From Patiria pectinifera (Eukaryota > Echinodermata > Asteroidea > Valvatida > Asterinidae): a stretch of 64,000 nucleotides of DNA. Where the stretch lies: contig CM057147.1 in assembly GCA_029964075.1 (NCBI GenBank), positions 21,535,513 through 21,599,512 of the forward strand, read 5' to 3'. A program made the position numbers and the translations under genes. The notes under the pieces are model-generated. The model made no database searches and was not told the origin of the DNA. It saw nothing but the letters and a program-made list of their open reading frames with translations. This document shows, one piece after another, positions 38,887-47,699 of the stretch; position 1 is the stretch's first letter, and each line of letters begins with the position of its first letter.

Positions 38887-39447
38887 GGTCCTACTAAAGC
38901 GCGTCAACAAGCGTCAACAAGCCTAAACGGTCGTCAACGAACGTCAACAAATTTTGTATGGGCTTTTAAACATTAAAAACAGCTTTATATGGTAGAAAAA
39001 GCAATAAAGAACATCTTCTGCATATCAATTTTAGTTTAAATTATTTTAAAACTTGGTTTTTTGAACGCGAAATGTACGACGAATGTGTCGATAAAAGTTG
39101 GCCGCCATCTTGTTTGGATGGCGCTGTAGACTTCGCGCATGCGTAGTATGGCTCTGTACACTTCACGCATGTAGTACGCGTAGTACGGCTAGCTACACAT
39201 AAACAAGATGGCGGCCAACCTTTATCGACAAATTCGTCGTACATTTCGCGTTCAAAAAACCAAGTTTTAGAATAATTCTAACTTTAATTGACATGCAGAA
39301 GATGTTCTTTATTGTTTTTTCTACCATATAAAGCAGTTTTTAATATTCAAAAGCCTATACAAAATTTGTTGACGTTCGTTGACGACCGTTTAGGCTTGTT
39401 GACGCTTGTTGACGCTTGTTGACGCGCTTTAGTACTATAGTAGGACC
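38887..39447. mobile_element. Foldback element abutting the MED21 start codon (element 1)
   Basis: A 561-bp near-palindrome. Ends are GGTCCTACTA...AAAGCGCGTCAACAAGCG, with repeated CGTCAACAA iterons, and the mirror image at 39375-39447. The arms stay similar to near the centre, ending in GGCCGCCATCTTGTTTGG (39100) and its mirror AAACAAGATGGCGGCCAAC (39201). No target duplication was found. It belongs with element 2 (39843-40585), which has the same GCGTCAACA iterons and a similar inner CCGCCATCTTG. It ends 14 bp before the MED21 ATG, so it must supply the leader and probably the core promoter. Confidence 0.85.
39101..39215. promoter_or_regulatory. YY1/NRF1-like sites in the centre of foldback element 1
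   Basis: GCCGCCATCTTGT (39101-39113) and ACAAGATGGCGGC (39203-39215) match the YY1 consensus around AAGATGGCGGC, in opposite orientations. CGCGCATGCGT (39134-39144) matches an NRF1-type site (GCGCATGCGC). YY1 and NRF1 sites are typical of TATA-less housekeeping promoters. The symmetric layout between the minus-strand zinc-finger gene and plus-strand MED21 would suit a bidirectional promoter. Promoter function is inferred. Confidence 0.55.
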
Positions 39448-39503: not shown

Positions 39504-42500
39504 GTATGATTTGGGAGACAAAACAGAGCCAGCTAGGAAAAAGTATTAAATCAGGAGTTGGTGTGTTTATTGAGGATTATATTTACTCTGAATAAAAGCC
39601 TTTTAATTGTGGGAAAGTGGCAAAATTTTTGTCAAAAGCATTTTTGTGATGTGGCCCAGTTTTCGGACATCTACTCAATCAACTTTAAAGTGGCACTAGG
39701 TTCTGCTGAAAGCTTTCGAGTCAACTCGTACCTTGGGCGACTCGTACCTTGGACAACTCGTACCTTGGACAACTCGTACCTTGGACATCTCGTACCTTGG
39801 ATAACTCGTACCTTGGACAACTCGTACCTTCAATTAAGACGAGGGTCGCACTAAAAAGCGTCAACACACCGTCAACACAGCGTCAACACATGACAGAAGC
39901 GTCAACACACCGTCAACACATCCAAAACACATTCTGAATTGACAAAAATGGTATATAATTGTAAAGCATAGAATAAAAGAGAATTTCCATTGGTTTGAGT
40001 TTCCATTTCGTTGTTAAAAATATAGTATTTTCACGCGAAAAAAATGACCTTTCGCTTGCACGGCCGTTGTCCGCCATCTTGACTTTGCACAAAGCTTGGA
40101 CTACAACATTTTTAGTAGGGGTGTGTAGGTAATGACATTATCTTGTCATAAACAACAGAGGGATACCAGATCTGTGAGGACTGAGGATCGGAGTGGTGAA
40201 TCATTATTTTGTGAGTTGTGTTTATGTTTCATTTACTTTATTGAAATGGACATCTTTTGGTATTGGCCGGCCGCGCCCTCTCTGTTGGTTTATTGTACAA
40301 CGCTATCACCCTTTAGCATAATGGTATGGTCCTCACTGCCACTGAGGCAACATGGCAGCCGATTTCGGAGCAGCACGGAGAGCCAATTTTCTTGAACTGA
40401 AAATCGCAATTTTCAGACGTTTAACCTATTGATTTTAAGCCAAAATCTTGTTTCTGACCATACTATATGGGTTACATACTGCTTTTGTCACTTATAATGC
40501 ATTTTGGATGTGTTGACGCTGTGTTGACGCTGTGTTGACGCTTTGGAGTGTGTTGACGCTGTGTTGACGCTTTTTAGTATGACCGTAAGACGACTCGTAC
40601 CATCAGAATAAAAAGTAGAGTACACTACGTGCGTGACTTAGTGTGTGGTTCCTTGACTCCGAAACGATACAGTCAAAGTTAATTTCCTTCTCACAGAACC
40701 ACATTCAAGATCTAATGGCTTTGCCGGGCAGCATTATTTTACGCATTGGGCCTGGCGGGCCGGCCTCCGAGGGCGCGAGCAGCGGTCGGTCGTGCGCGGT
40801 ACCGATGCCGGTGACTCGGAAGCGGCCGGCCTGCGCGGCGCGCGCGGCAGTGCCATTCTGTTTTTAAAGGTATTACATGTACTTGTACTTCATTGTGCAT
40901 AATAAATGTTTAATTCGGTAGCTAAGATAACTTGTGAAATAAATTTTAATATACTTTTTGTTTTTTTCTTTTTAGGTTCTGGATTTGGCAAGGACCAGAT
41001 GAGTGAGATGACATCGACAGTTTATTCTTTTAGTGTGTGGTTCCTTGACTCCCACATGATACGATGTTTTGCAAGTTGATTTATGTTCCAAAGAACCATA
41101 TTGCACGTGCTCGGGCCGGGGCATACAACTTCGTACGCAGTCTAGCATAATTAATCAAACTATGAATTGAAATTGTTATCTAAATTTAAATCATTTTATT
41201 TTCTGTCATTTCTTTTTAGGTTCTGGATTTGGTAAGGACCAGGTGATATCGAGAGTGATTATTCAGTTTGAGCGTGAACTGATTACTGGCATAGGCTTGG
41301 TTGTATATTTGGTTATTGCATGGAGGTAGGAAACAAGAGGTCATTATCATTCAATATTATTGGGAATGTTTTTCTTTTAGTCCTTTTTTGGGGGCGGGTT
41401 CTTGTGTTGTGTTTTTTAATAGAGAAATTAATTTTGTGTCATACTCTGCATAATAATCGTTTGATTTGGTCATATCAAAAAATGTAGTATACTTTTTTTG
41501 GTTCGTTTTAGGTTCTGGATTTGGCAAAGACGTGGTGACATCGACAGTGAGCTATTCAGTTTGAGGGAGAAGTTACTGGGACCGATTGAAGACAAAAGTG
41601 AATTGGCAGTAAACATTTGTTATCCCTGCAAAGAAGTTTTCGTGATCATTTTCAGAAAATCTTGTGATAACATGAATTGGCAGATATACTTATTACTTAT
41701 GTGCTACGAAATTTTAGTGATTATTTTCAAAGTAATAAAATGTGGACGAAATTATTATGTCTTTTATTTTATAGCTTTTTTGTGGTGGGGCATTTTTTTT
41801 TTCAGAAGAATTGTTAGAATTGCAATCTCTTTTAAAGTGCTTTTCTTCAGGTTACCTTTTTTAACCGAAGGATTCATAATTTTTTCTGGGGGGGGGGAGA
41901 ATTTTTTTTATTTATTCAATTTCAACAGCAGGATTCAATCTCTTTTTTGAACATGTTTGGCCCGTTAGGGCCGGTGGCTCTGAAAAGAGCCGTTTGGGTT
42001 TTAGTGGTGGCTTGACTTGACCAGGTTCAGGCAGATGGTCCGTTGAGGTGACTGCATGCAGACAGGAGGCCGGATGTGGTAAGTTGCCCATCTTGGTAGG
42101 CGTCCCATAGCTTGAATGCCTTGCCTTGAGACCTTGTGTACTGCTTGCGCTGGTATCTTGCCAGCTTGGATGCCTTGAGCAGCTTCATCTGGACGCTGAC
42201 GAGTGACGCCTCTCGGTGGAGCAGGTGCAGAAGCTTGTAGAAGTGCAGACCGTGTCGGCCGGCCTTAAAGTTGATGCGCCGGTGCCACCCTTCCACGTCG
42301 TTGTTGGTGCGCGTGCTCTGCAGGAAAACGGTCCAGCTGGTTGGTGCCCACTTGGTGCTGACGATCCATGTCGTTTCGATGTAGTCGCACAGCTGGATCA
42401 ATGGTGGTGAATTAGCGCGTTCCTGCATCTTGTAGAACGCCCTGGGGATATGCTCATGAGGTAAGAATGGCAAGGCCATCAATTTCTTGATGAACTGCCT

Positions 42501-45500
42501 GACGGAGACATCACTGTTGAATGGAACGACTAGACCAAGTTGTTGGCAATGGCGCCAAACCGCCTGATTCCAGTGGAACAGGCAACCTCTCACTTTCACC
42601 TCGGGAAAGACCCGCCGGATGGCCGACCACATACCAGCCTCGAAGTCCACGACCATCTCTTCAACCCTCGACCCGCTGGATGGCAGCTTCTTCTTGATGC
42701 GCTTCAGGACTTTCTTGTAGTCGCGTTTGGTGCGACTCGACATCAGGACAAACGCCAAAGGGACTTGCTTCTGCTGGCCGTTGTCCCCCTTCACAAATGC
42801 ATGGATGCTAAACAGCTGCTTGAATGGACGCTTGGTGATCTTGAACGTGCCGTCCATGTACCATGTCTTGGCTCTGTCCAAGACTGAACGCTGGTCTTCG
42901 GTATAGAACAAGATGTGCCGAGAGTTTCCCACCCGGATGTCAGCCTGGAGGAAGCCATCTGGCACACTTGAAGACACGATGTCAAAGCCCAGGTCGGTGG
43001 GGTCTGGTGGACGCTGGCTTTGGCGAGCCCGGTTACAAATACGGACGAGGTTGCATGGCTTGGGACAGACGGGGACATCAGGAGCCGCTACATCTGTGAG
43101 CACCCCCTCGACAATGGTGCCTGCGGAATGGAAGATGTTGGCCCTTGCCATCATCTTCACATCCCTCTTCACCTCGACCTGGATGCCTGCACCGGGATTC
43201 GAAGGATGGAGATGTTCTTGGTGACGTCCAAACCGGAAGGAGTCGCAGTGCTGCAAAACAGAAGCTGGGCATCGGAAATGCTTGTTTCGTACACTGCAAA
43301 CCCACGAAGAAAAGTCCGAAGTCGGGTCCTTCTTCCACTTCATGGTGTAGGTGTAGCCGTTGGAGTCCACCAGAACTTTCTTCCCGCGTTGCGTTCCACT
43401 GTCAGTGAGCTTGAAAGTGGTGACCACGTCGTCGCCGATGACACCCTCCAAGGACTCAGGAAGGTCCATGTCAGGCAGAGGTTCCTCTTCCGCTGGCTGA
43501 GGGATTTCAAACTCGGCGCTCAGATGAAAGGAATCAGTCTCCATGATCTCCTCTTCATCCAGGCCGAGGTTGGAGTGACGAGTGCTTTCGCCCACCGGGA
43601 CTGGAGACGAAGCCGGACCCTGACAGTGCTCACACTCCCAAGTCGTACTTGCATCCACGAGCTGCAAGTATTCCTCCCGTGAAAATCCGGTGTTGCAGAC
43701 GCGATGCTGCCAACGATCACACCGATCACACTGGAGGGCCTGCTGGTTACTGCGGACTGCCTTAGCACAAACTACGCACGGAAACTGGACAGGCATCTTG
43801 ACTTGAAACTGGATCTTGGAGCAGAAATTGCGATGATAACTAGTATGGGTAGTTGAAACAACTGATGATTTCAATCCGAGCGGCAATTTTTATAGAGTTT
43901 CGAAGGATCCAAGGTTCACATAAATCGACCAATCATCTCTCTTTTTTGTTGCGGTATCCGTTTCACTAGTTGGGAAGCGGGGAGCACGGCAAGATCATAG
44001 TAAATTAAGTCCTATTCACAACGGGCGTTGACAAAAAAAAGGACCCCGTATAACGCTTCACATTCGCGATGCACATTCTGAGCTCTCCCAGAACCGATGC
44101 GGCGAGTTCAAAGCTGATGATGTTCTCATGCCGGGGCCTTTAGTTTGACAAGGACACCCAAAGTGTCGCTCATCTATTGAAGCGTCGCTCATCTTTAGAA
44201 GTGTCATTCATCTATAGAAGTGTCACTCATGTATTGAATTTTACGGTGGAGAAACTTCAGATGCGGATTTGGTGTAGTTTAATTATGCAATACAGCCTAA
44301 CCACCGTAACATCCTGTTTCCAGAGCGAGCTTTATTAAACTCTATTAAAACCAACCGACAAAATTTATAAAGCAAATTTAAACATTTAATGTGTCTAAAT
44401 AAAGTAATTTCTGCGTTTTCTTGTGAAGTCTAATAACCAAAGTATACAAGAGCAGTCAGTACTTTTAAATGATTCAGTCCTTTCCTAGCTATAAGTGGTA
44501 CCCTATAAGTCTGAAAGTCTAAAATGTAAAAAAAAAAAATCACAGTTGGTTTATTCATCAACCGGTTTATTCGAAACTTTGGGGGCGGGGGTTTGGCCAG
44601 ATGTTTCGTCATAGTCCGACTTGTTGAAATGAAATCGATGAACAGCAGACAAGTCATCGTCTCTTGAGCAGCGCAATCGTTCATCAGAAACCCGCAAGAT
44701 CATCTGGAAAAAAAAAAAATAGAGGTAAACACATAGTTTTGGGATGAAAATATATCGATTCCGTAATACATGTATTTTTAAGTAGGCCTAAGTCTCTAAA
44801 TGCCGTTGAAAAAACGGCAAACTGCAACAATGTCACCGTCTTGTTAAACAAGGTCCGACTTGTTAAAATGAAATCAATTAATAATGGTGGACTAGCAGCA
44901 ATTATCTTTCGAGCAGCGCAGTGGTTCATCAGAAAACCGCAGGTTCATCTGTAAAAAAAAAAAAATTGCGGTGAACACAAAGTTTGGGATGAAAATTAGT
45001 ATTTCCTAACAAAATTGGAAATATTTGTCAGTCCAAGATTCACGTCTTATCTTTTTTGCGGGGAAAAAAAAAGAGAAAAGTAGTTCAGGCGATTATACGG
45101 ATCAATAATAGGAAAAATGTTGCAACCTGACGCCACTTTTTTTCATACATATATCATCTCAATGATGGTCATTCATTGCAGAAATGATGGTAAGCCGTGA
45201 ATCTTGGATAAAAACATCAGTTCCATAATATTTTCACGTAGCCTAAGTCTCTAAACGTAACGGCAGACTGCATCAATGTCACCGTGCACAGACGTCCATA
45301 TTGACCGGTCAGCGCGGCGCAAGAGCCGTGTCACTTTGCACGGATGCCGCGTGGGCCTGTGCATGCCGCGTGGGCCTGTGCATGCCGCGCACACAGTGCG
45401 TGTAAGCTTCCGCGGCCGGCTTCGCGCTAAATAAATTCCTCTTTTGGGGGGAAAGAGAGCCCATACCAAAAAGAGATTCACCTTTATTTTAATAAGCAGT

Positions 45501-47699
45501 CCACTTTCAATGAGTTACGGTCCACTTTATTCAGCCTCGGATCATTATCCTGATTGACGGTACGACTTGTCTTACGCGTGATGGTACGAGTCGTCTTAAC
45601 TGAAGGTACGACTTGCCGAAGGTACGAGTTGTCCAAGGTACGACTCGGTATAATGACGTCGAGTTGAAGGTACGAGTTGTCCAAGGTACGAGTTGCCCAA
45701 GGTACGAGATGACCTGTTACCTGCTGAAATCCCTGAAAATTTCAAGTTTTGGATTGTTTACTTATCCTATTTCAAAAATCTGTTTGAAAAGAAACCAGCC
45801 TTGTTATGTCTTACCATTCCCGAGAAAAGATGAAAAAAAACCCCTGGTTGTTTACTAGCAGCCCTAATAATACTTAATAGCCCCATAAATGTGGCCAATT
45901 TACTGGACGGACTACCTCCGTAAATAAAGGCCACACTTCCACCATGTACAAAAACATGTCGAACTTTGTCAGATTTTGATTTTCACATTCAGGCTTAGTT
46001 TGTAGTTTATTTTTGCTTTACAAGCATACTCACCCTCTTTAATTATTGGCTAATCAGAAAGTGCTTCCCTTTTTCAGATGCCTCTTTTTTGTGAAATTTC
46101 CAGATTCATTTGCACACGTTTGCGTATCAAAATTTCAACAGGAAATTTCACGCATGAAATTTCATCTGAAGAAGGCAGCACTTTCTGCAGCATGTTCCTC
46201 AAATACTACAAGGAGGGTTAGAGCATGTTGTGGGATGAGGAACCTACAGCCAAGACACTATATTAATAACTTTACATGGACTAATAATTCCCCTTGAAAT
46301 TCAAGTACGCATCCAATTACATGTATATTCCTGCACAGCCAAGGGTAGGTTTTTAACACTAAATAACAGAATACATGGTGTTTAGGAATAGTAACCATAT
46401 AAACCTCTCTTCTTTTTTTGTTGGTGTTTTTTTGTCTCCAACAGCTTGCAGAGCATTTCTGTAACAGCGTCGGTGTCCTTCAGCAGAGTGCATCTCCGGC
46501 CAAGTTCCCCGGCTTTGAGAAGCAAGGTGTCGGCCAGCAGCCAGAACCGGCCCAGTCACAGGAGGAATACTCACAGCTCTTTGCTCAGCTCATAGCGCGG
46601 ACGGCTAAAGACATTGATGTCTTGATTGACTCCTTGCCTAGCGAAGAATCAACACTTGAACTTCAGGTGAGGCCTTCTAGCCTTGGTGAAAATGTGGTTA
46701 GAGATTTGAACCAGTGTGACCATAGTGATCAAAAGCTGATTCACTCTTGGATATTGAATCAGGGTCCAGCGAGTGCATCAAAGCATCATTCAGACATTTG
46801 GTCAACTTATTTGACAAATTTGTTTGGAATTTTGTTTTTATAAATTAAATTTAAGCTGATCTCCTGTCATGGACCCTTACTGCCTGTCATCAAACAGTAC
46901 TCACTGACCAATTACATCATGGGTTGTGGTCAGGTGACCACGGTGGCTCAGTCAAACGTCACAAACACTGTTAGAAATGTACACAAACCAATGGCGGGTG
47001 GGGCTAATGGCGAAATTCAGAACCATCCATTTTATACGCGCACCCCCCCCCCCCTTTCAATCATAGGCACACATATATGTTCAAAACAATCTTCCCCAGG
47101 AATGAGTTACCATAGTGGTACCATGGAGATTTGGATGTGTCATTGTAAAATTCAGTCTATCTTGGGTTATTTAAGCGAAAACAAGAATTACTGAATACAT
47201 TTTCAGAGCATTTTTTTTATATGAGTTCTAGTTCCAACCTCTTCCTGATGTGTTTTAGGACAGGATTATGACCAGTTTTGCTACTTTTAACTGTTACGAG
47301 TCTCAAATATTTTGTTTAATTAATTAACATTGAAGCCAGTTGCAGTGCACTTTATCAGATTTTGTTCAGTGGGTATTGCCAAAACACAAGACGAAGAACC
47401 ACTCAAAGTTGTGGCTATAAACAAGAACAAAACAGAAAAGAACAAAACATGATCACTGTTGGATATTTCTCATCTTCACTTGACAGCAAGCATCCTTGAG
47501 GAACCTGGAGGCTGACAACCAAGAAGCTGCCGCCAAACTTGCCGAGGTGGTTGAGAGAGGGGAGGCGCTGCTGGTCCGAATACAGGAGGCCCTGGCGGAC
47601 ATTGCAGAGGCACAGCTCCGGACCCAGAGTGCCAAGAAAGGAAAGCAAGCCAAGGAGGAAAAGGTTGAAAAAGAGGAAGAAAGTCAAGAGACAACGTGA
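39462..47699 (+). CDS. MED21: Mediator complex subunit 21
   Basis: Three coding exons, all joined in phase 0: 39462-39503 ([14 protein letters not shown]), 46445-46666 and 47487-47699, giving about 158 residues against 144 in human MED21. Recognised by the N-terminal [12 protein letters not shown], the central FCN..GVLQQ and the highly conserved block [20 protein letters not shown], followed by a C-terminal helix ([15 protein letters not shown]). MED21 pairs with MED7 as the hinge of the Mediator middle module, linking activators to RNA polymerase II in the nucleus. Splice sites: CAG/GTATGA, CAACAG/CTT, CAG/GTGAGG, GACAG/CAA. Oddities: a Lys/Glu-rich tail of about 20 residues; a first intron of 6.9 kb, most of it a 6.0 kb Mutator-like element; a foldback element 14 bp before the ATG; CDIN1 39 bp after the stop. 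Confidence 0.94.
39726..39842 (+). repeat. Left terminal iteron array of the MULE
   Basis: Seven CTCGTACCTTGG-type units at about 15-bp spacing. After the inserted foldback element the array resumes at 40586-40606 (TAAGACGACTCGTACCATCA), matching the corresponding part of the right array. Confidence 0.9.
39843..40585. mobile_element. Foldback element 2, nested in the MULE left terminal repeat
   Basis: 743 bp flanked by the 8-bp duplication TAAGACGA (39835-39842 and 40586-40593). Ends GGGTCGCACTAAAAAGCGTC and, inverted, GACGCTTTTTAGTATGACC, followed inwards by several CGTCAACAC iterons on each side. Arms are recognisably inverted but diverged. The inner left arm carries CCGCCATCTTG (40071-40081). 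It has no coding potential. Similar ends, iterons and inner motif place it in one family with element 1 (38887-39447). Confidence 0.9.
40620..41570 (+). repeat. Three tandem degenerate units inside the MULE
   Basis: The block T-rich tract, TTTTTAG, GTTCTGGATTTGGCAAGG, recurs at about 40963, 41208 and 41500. GTGTGTGGTTCCTTGACTCC recurs at about 40640 and 41033, and ATACTNTGCATAATAAT-like sequence precedes two of the units. Spacing is 240-290 bp. Each T-rich/AG boundary resembles a 3' splice site. No protein family was recognised across them. Confidence 0.6.
41498..41950 (+). other. Open frame of doubtful value inside the MULE
   Basis: An open frame of about 150 codons with a non-ATG start overlaps the third tandem unit. 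The translation is Phe/Ile-rich, as expected from T-rich DNA, with no recognised domain, and it runs up to the histone-like 3' end of the convergent transposase. I do not consider it a confirmed gene. Confidence 0.2.
41976..41991 (-). terminator. Histone-type 3' stem-loop after the transposase
   Basis: On the minus strand the sequence is GGCTCTTTTCAGAGCC followed by ACCG, with AAACCCAAAC before it. This is the canonical replication-dependent histone mRNA hairpin: 6-bp stem, 4-nt loop, A-rich 5' flank, ACC 3' flank. It begins 35 nt after the transposase stop. A purine-rich CAAAAAAGAGA at 41939-41949 resembles the histone downstream element that pairs with U7 snRNA, though at about 26 nt it is a little far. 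AATAAA words at 41907-41916 could provide an alternative poly(A) site. Confidence 0.85.
42027..43796 (-). CDS. Mutator-like transposase with PHD finger and FLYWCH-type zinc finger
   Basis: 589 residues from the ATG at 43796 (Kozak context CAAG before the ATG); the frame stays open upstream to 43886 but has no earlier ATG. Order of domains: PHD finger at about 7-58 (C7, C10, C23, C26, H31, C34, C55, C58); acidic linker 80-120; FLYWCH-like zinc finger at about 120-197 ([21 protein letters not shown]); MULE DDE core at about 300-510 with YMDGTFK (D315), VVDFEAG (D384), CLFHWNQ and [10 protein letters not shown] (candidate catalytic E502). The enzyme would cut and join transposon ends in the nucleus; the PHD finger may read histone tails. 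Intronless with no internal stop, so it could be functional. It lies in a histone-like promoter and 3' end. Confidence 0.95.
   Translation of the reverse strand: MPVQFPCVVCAKAVRSNQQALQCDRCDRWQHRVCNTGFSREEYLQLVDASTTWECEHCQGPASSPVPVGESTRHSNLGLDEEEIMETDSFHLSAEFEIPQPAEEEPLPDMDLPESLEGVIGDDVVTTFKLTDSGTQRGKKVLVDSNGYTYTMKWKKDPTSDFSSWVCSVRNKHFRCPASVLQHCDSFRFGRHQEHLHPSNPGAGIQVEVKRDVKMMARANIFHSAGTIVEGVLTDVAAPDVPVCPKPCNLVRICNRARQSQRPPDPTDLGFDIVSSSVPDGFLQADIRVGNSRHILFYTEDQRSVLDRAKTWYMDGTFKITKRPFKQLFSIHAFVKGDNGQQKQVPLAFVLMSSRTKRDYKKVLKRIKKKLPSSGSRVEEMVVDFEAGMWSAIRRVFPEVKVRGCLFHWNQAVWRHCQQLGLVVPFNSDVSVRQFIKKLMALPFLPHEHIPRAFYKMQERANSPPLIQLCDYIETTWIVSTKWAPTSWTVFLQSTRTNNDVEGWHRRINFKAGRHGLHFYKLLHLLHREASLVSVQMKLLKASKLARYQRKQYTRSQGKAFKLWDAYQDGQLTTSGLLSACSHLNGPSA
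43887..43933 (-). promoter_or_regulatory. Histone-like promoter of the transposase
   Basis: Going towards the gene on the minus strand: an ATTGG/CCAAT box (43929-43933), GGATCC (43905-43910), 10 nt, then TATAAAAA (43887-43894), with the ATG at 43796. A start about 25-30 nt after the TATA box would give a leader of about 65 nt. Sea urchin histone genes classically have GATCC shortly upstream of TATA. The elements are seen directly; activity is inferred. Confidence 0.7.
44600..45250. repeat. Imperfect direct repeats inside the MULE
   Basis: Segments at about 44612-44790 and 44853-45000 share GTCCGACTTGTT.AAATGAAATC, GAGCAGCGCA, GTTCATCAGAAA and TTTGGGATGAAAAT. A third partial copy near 45225-45280 shares GTAGCCTAAGTCTCTAAA and CAATGTCACCGT. 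Between them, 44999-45200 contains scrambled pieces of the small element at 56206-56377. Confidence 0.6.
45550..45720 (-). repeat. Right terminal iteron array of the MULE
   Basis: Inverted counterpart of the left array: GGTACGAGTTGTCCAA units, and GATGGTACGAGTCGTCTTAA at about 45579-45600, the uninterrupted version of the site where element 2 sits on the left. Confidence 0.9.
46445..46666 (+). CDS. MED21: MED21 exon 2
   Basis: Acceptor TTTTTTTGTCTCCAACAG, donor CAG/GTGAGG; 74 codons, open throughout, holding the diagnostic [16 protein letters not shown] segment. Confidence 0.95.
47487..47699 (+). CDS. MED21: MED21 exon 3 (terminal)
   Basis: Acceptor TTCACTTGACAG; 70 codons then TGA at 47697-47699. 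It encodes the C-terminal coiled coil and a charged tail. The last codon and stop (ACG TGA GT) also spell a consensus 5' splice site GTGAGT at 47696-47701. Confidence 0.92.
   Translation, partial: QASLRNLEADNQEAAAKLAEVVERGEALLVRIQEALADIAEAQLRTQSAKKGKQAKEEKVEKEEESQETT

What the first reader, a model, noticed from the sequence alone, without database searches (positions are those of the whole stretch)
41976..42029. A Mutator-like transposase mRNA with a replication-dependent histone 3' end
Thirty-five nt after the transposase stop, on the coding strand, lies a perfect GGCTCTTTTCAGAGCC hairpin with the A-rich 5' flank and ACC 3' flank of metazoan histone mRNAs. A purine-rich CAAAAAAGAGA follows about 26 nt later, like the U7-binding element. 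If used, the transposase message would be non-polyadenylated, bound by SLBP and made mainly in S phase, coupling transposition to replication when gaps and sister chromatids are available. I know of no described Mutator element with this.
Basis: partly seen in the sequence, partly recalled or inferred. Interest (0 to 1): 0.95.

Follow-up and report, generated by a model that had tools for sequence, protein, structure and literature searches.

The report
Transposons carrying histone-type mRNA ends
In this animal genome several different families of jumping genes end their genes with the hairpin signal known from histone mRNAs, which would tie their activity to DNA replication if the signal is used.

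Summary
A perfect histone 3' hairpin lies 35 nt after the stop of an open PHD-MULE transposase frame, inside the element's TIRs and 9-bp target-site duplication.

It is conserved. Of 26 MULE 3' ends examined, 20 carry it. The 16 of these in a 22-row tree form one supported group (98/96), most at roughly 50-60% amino-acid identity to the window. Stem changes are compensated, 9 of 20 have two hairpins, and a U7-type purine element follows. Several relatives score 37-41 bits with Rfam Histone3, the range of host histone genes tested (37-43). The window copy scores 30.3 (cut-off 34), because its purine element is displaced by a second small hairpin.

The same end follows pogo and Tc1-like transposases and an unclassified ORF. 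In two families with reverse transcriptase (Penelope-like, name recalled) it precedes the RT. Of the first 26 perfect hairpins in genome order, one is a degenerate H4; eight more are repeats holding an H1 fragment.

SLBP is encoded; U7 was not found. No RNA was examined, so non-polyadenylation and S-phase timing are inferred. Nine paper searches listed no precedent.

The parts
39712..45720 (-). PHD-MULE transposon (transposase on minus strand), 6009 bp including a 743-bp nested insert
   Evidence: Homology with copies on C3 and C4 starts and stops here; 9-bp TSD; TIRs of ~16-bp tandem repeats
39703..39711 (.). left target-site duplication CTGCTGAAA
45721..45729 (.). right target-site duplication CTGCTGAAA
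39712..39842 (+). left TIR with tandem CTCGTACCTTGGACAA-type units
   Evidence: 39720-39842 matches 45591-45713 inverted, 84% over 127 columns; motif counts
45579..45720 (-). right TIR with tandem units (inverted)
42027..43796 (-). transposase ORF, 589 aa from ATG, no internal stop
   Evidence: Pfam MULE 1e-14
42564..42863 (-). MULE transposase domain (PF10551)
43623..43778 (-). N-terminal PHD finger (Pygopus/MLL-like)
   Evidence: Pfam PHD 2.3e-4, below its curated cut-off; phmmer to PDB Pygopus 2e-7
41976..41991 (-). histone-type 3' stem-loop GGCTCTTTTCAGAGCC, 35 nt after the stop
   Evidence: stem unchanged in 5 of 5 copies of this family, loop ATTC in the C21 copy
41959..41972 (-). second small hairpin GGCCCTAACGGGCC between stem-loop and purine element; stands where some sister families have a second histone hairpin
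   Evidence: RNA fold; present in 5 of 5 copies
41939..41949 (-). purine-rich histone downstream element CAAAAAAGAGA (U7-type)
   Evidence: similar motif in H4 genes L090/L093 and MULE relatives
41911..41916 (-). downstream AATAAA, possible fallback poly(A) signal
   Evidence: the same signal at +59 in copies L016 and L017

Best explanation
The transposase gene of this MULE, and those of pogo and Tc1-like lineages in the same genome, ends in a replication-dependent-histone type 3' processing signal: an SLBP-type stem-loop plus a U7-type purine element, usually 11-15 nt downstream. SHOWN by sequence: the signal is inside the mobile element, sense to the transposase, shortly after the stop, conserved with compensated stem changes across old MULE subfamilies, and in several subfamilies scores with the Rfam histone model in the range of host histone genes. 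INFERRED: the host SLBP/U7 machinery cleaves the transposase pre-mRNA after the hairpin, giving a non-polyadenylated message that is stable and translated mainly in S phase, so that transposition is timed to replication. AATAAA sites downstream would give fallback polyadenylated forms. In this window's family the purine element is pushed out by a second mini-hairpin; cleavage is then expected at a fixed distance from that element, just after the mini-hairpin.
For: Hairpin lies within TIRs/TSD and recurs in copies on C3, C4, C14 and C21. 20 of 26 MULE 3' ends examined carry it, 7-40 nt after the stop by the script's count. Tree of 109 C-terminal residues: 16 hairpin rows form one group, 98/96, against 6 without (22 of 26 rows used). 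Pair counts on 29 MULE hairpins (16 distinct): 99.0% of cells paired, 10 both-sided changes at 2 of 6 pairs, 0/500 shuffles as high on cells paired, cells changed on both sides, or covariation score. Rfam Histone3 above gathering in 12 of the 14 sources given that hold a hairpin: MULE L036 and L038 41.4, L021 and L041 37.2, pogo L020 37.9, against H1 L014 43.2 and the degenerate H4 L035 37.3. 43 of 47 distinct perfect hairpins in the fetched DNA have a purine element within 60 nt, 37 of the 43 at 11-15 nt, against 4.4% of random 60-mers. Host histone genes have the same hairpin and element. SLBP RNA-binding domain encoded on C5. Occurrence after pogo and Tc1-like transposases.
Against: No RNA data. 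Two of the whole-structure measures do not exceed shuffles (pairs with a change on both sides 392/500, further pair types 496/500). The window copy is below the Rfam gathering score; L047 (MULE) and L128 (Tc1-like) hold hairpins but had no listed Histone3 match. U7 RNA was not found: Rfam search empty with silent controls; pattern search 2 hits against 7 in its control. AATAAA lies within 220 nt downstream in 10 of 12 oriented loci tested, two H1 genes among them, and ATTAAA in an 11th (some loci hold less than 220 nt). The pogo frame holds a spliceosomal-type intron, unlike typical histone genes (recalled). 13 of 19 Tc1-like 3' ends lack the hairpin, including open-frame copies L118 and L119.
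Confidence: 0.82

Rival explanations
1. Passenger: the elements merely captured a histone 3' UTR (as Pack-MULEs capture gene fragments) and it has no function in the transposon.
For: Repeat family B (8 of the first 26 hairpins) carries a broken H1 gene fragment with its hairpin, so carriage without an intact gene does happen here. In some copies the hairpin is decayed or absent (L053, L055, L081, L082, L122, L123). Different stem types could also come from repeated captures of different histone ends.
Against: Kept over ~50% aa divergence with compensated stem changes; sense and shortly after the stop in the MULE, pogo and Tc1 copies that have it; 3' UTRs otherwise look unlike each other between subfamilies (by eye).
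Confidence: 0.08
2. DNA-level function: the palindrome is a transposase- or host-factor-binding site or recombination signal, not an RNA signal.
For: It is a perfect palindromic arm pair inside a DNA transposon.
Against: The TTTC loop and the asymmetric purine element at a typical spacing recur, both strand-specific features; they are shared by different transposases and by histone genes.
Confidence: 0.04
3. The signal works but mainly as a fast, compact terminator or export signal, without real S-phase restriction; the transposase is also made from polyadenylated forms.
For: AATAAA downstream; misprocessed histone pre-mRNA is reported to use downstream poly(A) signals (passages of PMC6303110).
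Against: Two H1 genes of this genome have the same downstream AATAAA, so it does not exclude normal histone regulation.
Confidence: 0.3

Closest known systems
Replication-dependent metazoan histone mRNAs (SLBP/U7 snRNP processing; Rfam RF00032)
   Same: Same hairpin, A-rich 5' flank, AC-type 3' flank, purine element mostly 11-15 nt downstream; scores in the range of host H1/H4 genes in several element families.
   Different: The gene encodes a transposase, not a histone; 9 of 20 MULE ends have two hairpins; the window family has a 26-nt spacer with an extra mini-hairpin; the pogo gene has an intron.
Animal PHD/MULE (Mutator superfamily) DNA transposons
   Same: MULE DDE domain, TIRs, 9-bp TSD, recent copies.
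   Different: Histone-type 3' end; none described in what nine paper searches listed. 6 of 26 MULE-relative 3' ends in the same genome lack it.
Pogo and Tc1-like DNA transposons (distant kin within IS630-Tc1-mariner, recalled)
   Same: HTH_Tnp_Tc5 + DDE_1, and DDE_3 transposases.
   Different: Same histone-type 3' end as the MULEs although the transposases belong to other Pfam families.
Penelope-like retroelements (name from recalled RT motifs; Pfam gives only RVT_1)
   Same: RT ORF preceded by a separate ORF1-like frame.
   Different: A histone hairpin lies upstream of the RT ORF, after the ORF1-like frame, in two families 47-51% identical in the RT.

Membership tests
Replication-dependent histone 3' end (RF00032) | 6-bp stem, UUUC-type loop, conserved flanks | tested here: met
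Replication-dependent histone 3' end (RF00032) | score above Rfam gathering (34 bits) | tested here: inconclusive
   Window copy 30.3, not met. Sister MULE families 37.2-41.4 (4 of 5 given) and pogo 37.9, met; L047 not listed.
Replication-dependent histone 3' end (RF00032) | purine-rich element ~10-17 nt downstream | tested here: inconclusive
   37 of 47 distinct perfect hairpins at 11-15 nt, sister MULE, pogo and Tc1-like ones among them. Window family has it at 26-30 nt behind a mini-hairpin.
Replication-dependent histone 3' end (RF00032) | SLBP in the host | tested here: met
   two neighbouring matches on C5 over the PF15247 cut-off, 52.1 and 39.2 bits, the second reading across one TGA
Replication-dependent histone 3' end (RF00032) | U7 snRNA in the host | tested here: inconclusive
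   not found; controls silent; pattern search at chance
Replication-dependent histone 3' end (RF00032) | mature mRNA ends after the hairpin without poly(A); S-phase expression | not testable with these tools
   no RNA data
Mutator-like element (MULE) | MULE transposase domain | tested here: met
   PF10551 55.2 bits, cut-off 27.6
Mutator-like element (MULE) | TIRs and 8-11 bp TSD (length recalled) | tested here: met
   9-bp TSD CTGCTGAAA in the window copy, tandem-repeat TIRs; in the C4 copy only a shifted 8-bp match, in C3 none found by the script
Mutator-like element (MULE) | recent mobility of the family | tested here: met
   C3 and C4 copies 97.4-99.9% identical over stretches of 448-3457 bp at other chromosomal sites

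The most novel reading that the evidence does not exclude
Histone-type 3' ends are a general, repeatedly acquired device of mobile elements in this animal: MULE, pogo and Tc1-like transposases, an unclassified C2H2-tailed ORF family, and two RT-bearing retroelement families where the signal sits between an ORF1-like frame and the RT. They put transposition under SLBP/S-phase control and, in the retroelements, would release a separate ORF1 message upstream of the RT.
Probability: 0.65. Interest if true: 0.95.

Novelty: new variant of a known kind. Interest (0 to 1): 0.92.

Why it matters
[quoted passage not shown] Transposons that took over this signal would be a non-histone class of such messages, new as far as my searches show. 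They would also give a direct molecular handle on the old question of why and how transposition is coupled to DNA replication. It warns too that poly(A)-selected RNA-seq may miss active transposases, and that isolated Histone3 hits in animal genomes need not be histone genes.

Tried and rejected
Chance: rejected. Hairpin as adjacent host sequence (for example a histone gene beside the element): rejected, it lies inside TIR/TSD and recurs in the copies. Unique oddity of one copy: rejected. Search for the U7 gene: failed both ways, so nothing is claimed. Viral contigs: hairpin plus element 0 matches, MULE protein 0 matches (records near the window's genome may be left out there). Classification of the L111 ORFs by Pfam: no family; one chance-level hit, DUF1388, E 0.067. 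Boundaries of repeats B and E and of the pogo element: not settled. In the alignment the C3 row was given on the wrong strand, so I rely for the five copies. An Rfam RF00032 scan of the genome did not complete. A genome-wide GGYYCTTTTCAGRRCC count did not complete four times. Species not identified.

Full report
OBSERVATION. The transposase reads on the minus strand: 42027-43886, ATG at 43796, 589 aa, MULE domain E 1e-14, N-terminal PHD finger. GGCTCTTTTCAGAGCC occupies 41976-41991, 35 nt past the stop; CAAAAAAGAGA is at 41939-41949. Rfam Histone3 gives 30.3 bits, E 1.1e-6 for 601 bases, under the curated 34. An exact GGYYCTTTTCAGRRCCAC occurs once in the window and in 0 of 100 shuffles. The genome holds 326 exact 16-mers against 0 of the reversed pattern.

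IT IS INSIDE THE ELEMENT. The window is part of a 613-Mb genome. The hairpin region finds five loci over all or nearly all its length: the window and C3, C4, C14 (95%) and C21 (87%); two further short matches are H1 genes. Copies on C3 and C4 start and end where the window element does (39712/45720); the window copy has the 9-bp duplication CTGCTGAAA and inverted arrays of ~16-bp units as TIRs. The hairpin stem is unchanged in all five; the C21 copy has loop ATTC. C3 and C4 copies are 97.4-99.9% identical over stretches of 448-3457 bp, so the family moved recently.

IT IS CONSERVED IN OLD RELATIVES. A protein search listed 86 matches (74 of 295 candidates scored). I looked at 26 MULE 3' ends: five of the window family, L021, and 20 fetched for reaching or nearing the C-terminus. 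Other listed matches that also reach the C-terminus were not fetched. 20 of 26 have a hairpin shortly after the stop: 18 with all six pairs, and L053 and L055 with five. Six have none; their matches are 38-48% identical to the window protein, but identity alone does not separate them, since three degraded hairpin-bearing copies (L039, L053, L055) score 41-48%. Stem variants are GGCTCT/AGAGCC, GGCCCT/AGGGCC, GGTCCT/AGGACC and GGTCCT/AGGGCC. Nine of the 20 have two intact hairpins, 31-71 nt apart start to start. Counting pairs on 29 MULE hairpins (16 distinct): 99.0% of cells paired, 10 two-sided changes at two pairs, sliding controls at most 58.3% paired. Two other measures of that call did not exceed shuffles. 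On a tree of 22 rows, 109 C-terminal residues (L016, L053 and L055 left out as chimeric or decayed, L017 as too short), the 16 hairpin rows are one side of a branch with support 98/96. The three stem types lie in different subclades, so by my reading at least three compensated replacements, or re-captures of other histone ends, occurred.

THE DOWNSTREAM ELEMENT. 43 of 47 distinct perfect hairpins in the fetched DNA have an AAAGAGA-type element (a loose set of motifs) within 60 nt, 37 of them at 11-15 nt, against 4.4% of random 60-mers. Four are at 30, the spacing of the window family by that script (CAAAAAAGAGA itself starts after 26 nt), behind a second small hairpin GGCCCTAACGGGCC that folds on its own. 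Measured from that second hairpin, the spacing is again ordinary. In sister families with two hairpins the same place holds a second true histone hairpin, so the mini-hairpin is plausibly its worn descendant (inference). [quoted passage not shown]), so I expect cleavage after the mini-hairpin. Host histone genes of the C7 cluster (H2A, H2B, H3, H4, named from recalled C-termini) and H1 genes have the same hairpin and element; the H4 element (L090) differs from that of the window MULE by one base over CAAAAAAGAGATTGGATC/CAAAAAAGAGATTGAATC.

OTHER ELEMENTS. Pogo: L020 encodes HTH_Tnp_Tc5 + DDE_1 and has a perfect hairpin 20 nt after the stop. Two more copies (L078, L079) are the same; three of a sister group (L080-L082, 51-68% identical over their main matches) keep the purine element and a hairpin with five of six pairs; L083-L086 could not be judged. 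A GTAAGT...GCAG intron interrupts the L020 frame. Tc1-like: L109+L105 encode a DDE_3 transposase (E 6e-13), hairpin 29 nt after the stop. Of 19 Tc1-like 3' ends examined, five have at least one fully paired hairpin (in L128 GGTTCT/AGAACC and GGCTCT/AGAGCC in tandem), one (L121) a decayed one, and 13 none, not counting a weak, distant match in L134. C2H2-tailed ORF family without Pfam name: L095 (with L111), L100 and, by eye, L102. RT-bearing elements: in L031, L099 and L106 (98-99% alike) an RT ORF begins about 690 nt after the hairpin; an ORF1-like frame ends before the hairpin in L099 (241 codons) and in part in L031. In the L098/L028 family an RT 47-51% identical begins ~220 nt after the hairpin in L098; L028 has only part of it; its upstream frame ends 30 nt before the hairpin. 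Pfam calls the L031 RT RVT_1; 'Penelope-like' is my recollection of motifs. Rfam scores over gathering: L036 and L038 41.4, L031 40.9, L034 40.7, L029 39.3, L020 37.9, L027 37.7, L021 and L041 37.2, L028 36.5; real or derived histone genes L014 43.2 and L035 37.3 (15 sources given, 14 with a hairpin; L128 and L047 had no listed match).

CENSUS. The first 26 of the 326 places in genome order (C1 to C7:2341008), taken without selection, are: 8 repeat B (broken H1 fragment), 6 repeat C (three of these, L023, L026 and L029, were compared with L031: 73-74% alike over its tail and no RT found), 4 MULE places in three loci, 2 L027/L028-type, 2 repeat E, 1 pogo, 1 L031, 1 unclassified (L030), 1 degenerate H4. 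A second set of 20, chosen to include clusters, held 10 histone genes, 4 RT-element (L097 and L106 assigned by their flanks or downstream RT), 3 C2H2-ORF, 1 E, 1 Tc1-like, 1 unclassified. Of the other places only those met through the protein and DNA searches were looked at.

MECHANISM. Shown: position, strand, conservation, compensation, spacing, SLBP in the genome. Inferred: SLBP/U7 cleavage, lack of poly(A), S-phase timing. Not found: U7. Against exclusivity: AATAAA downstream in 10 of 12 oriented loci checked and ATTAAA in an 11th, though two H1 genes show it too. Origin: capture of histone 3' ends is plausible because repeat B shows carried H1 ends. Separate gains in the MULE and Tc1-like lineages are suggested by hairpin-free relatives of both; for pogo no hairpin-free relative was assessed, and exchange between elements is not excluded.

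LITERATURE. Nine full-text searches listed no title or abstract on transposons with histone-type 3' ends; two lists were cut at 20 papers. For all but PMC6303110 I saw listings only. That covers the held open-access library, not subscription papers or Repbase.

Noticed in passing
L031:3324-6021; L099+L112+L114; L106+L115; L098+L113+L116; L028: Histone hairpin lies upstream of an RT ORF, after an ORF1-like frame where that was seen, in two RT families about 50% identical; an internal mRNA end that could give a separate ORF1 message.
   Followed up: partly
L001, L003, L004, L006, L022, L024, L025, L032: A long dispersed repeat carries a broken H1 gene fragment with its hairpin, a record of histone 3' end capture.
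   Followed up: partly
L128 (reverse complement 85-117), L126, L129: Tc1-like copies have two hairpins almost back to back, 1 nt between: in L128 GGTTCT/AGAACC then GGCTCT/AGAGCC; in L126 and L129 variants of these.
   Followed up: partly
window 39843-40585: 743-bp insert with gcgtcaacac-type repeats nested in the MULE's left end, absent from C3 and C4 copies.
   Followed up: no
window 38901-39415: A 515-bp imperfect palindrome (87% over 524 aligned columns) beside the element.
   Followed up: no
L035:4831-4954: U2 snRNA-like match (56.9 bits) beside a degenerate H4 gene.
   Followed up: no
L033, L034, L101 (repeat E); L030; L096: Further hairpin loci, most with a purine element, and no recognised protein; what they end is unknown.
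   Followed up: no
L122, L123: Tc1-like 3' ends that look identical (C7:23049420 and C7:117080, opposite strands) without hairpin, perhaps a duplicated or misassembled end of C7.
   Followed up: no
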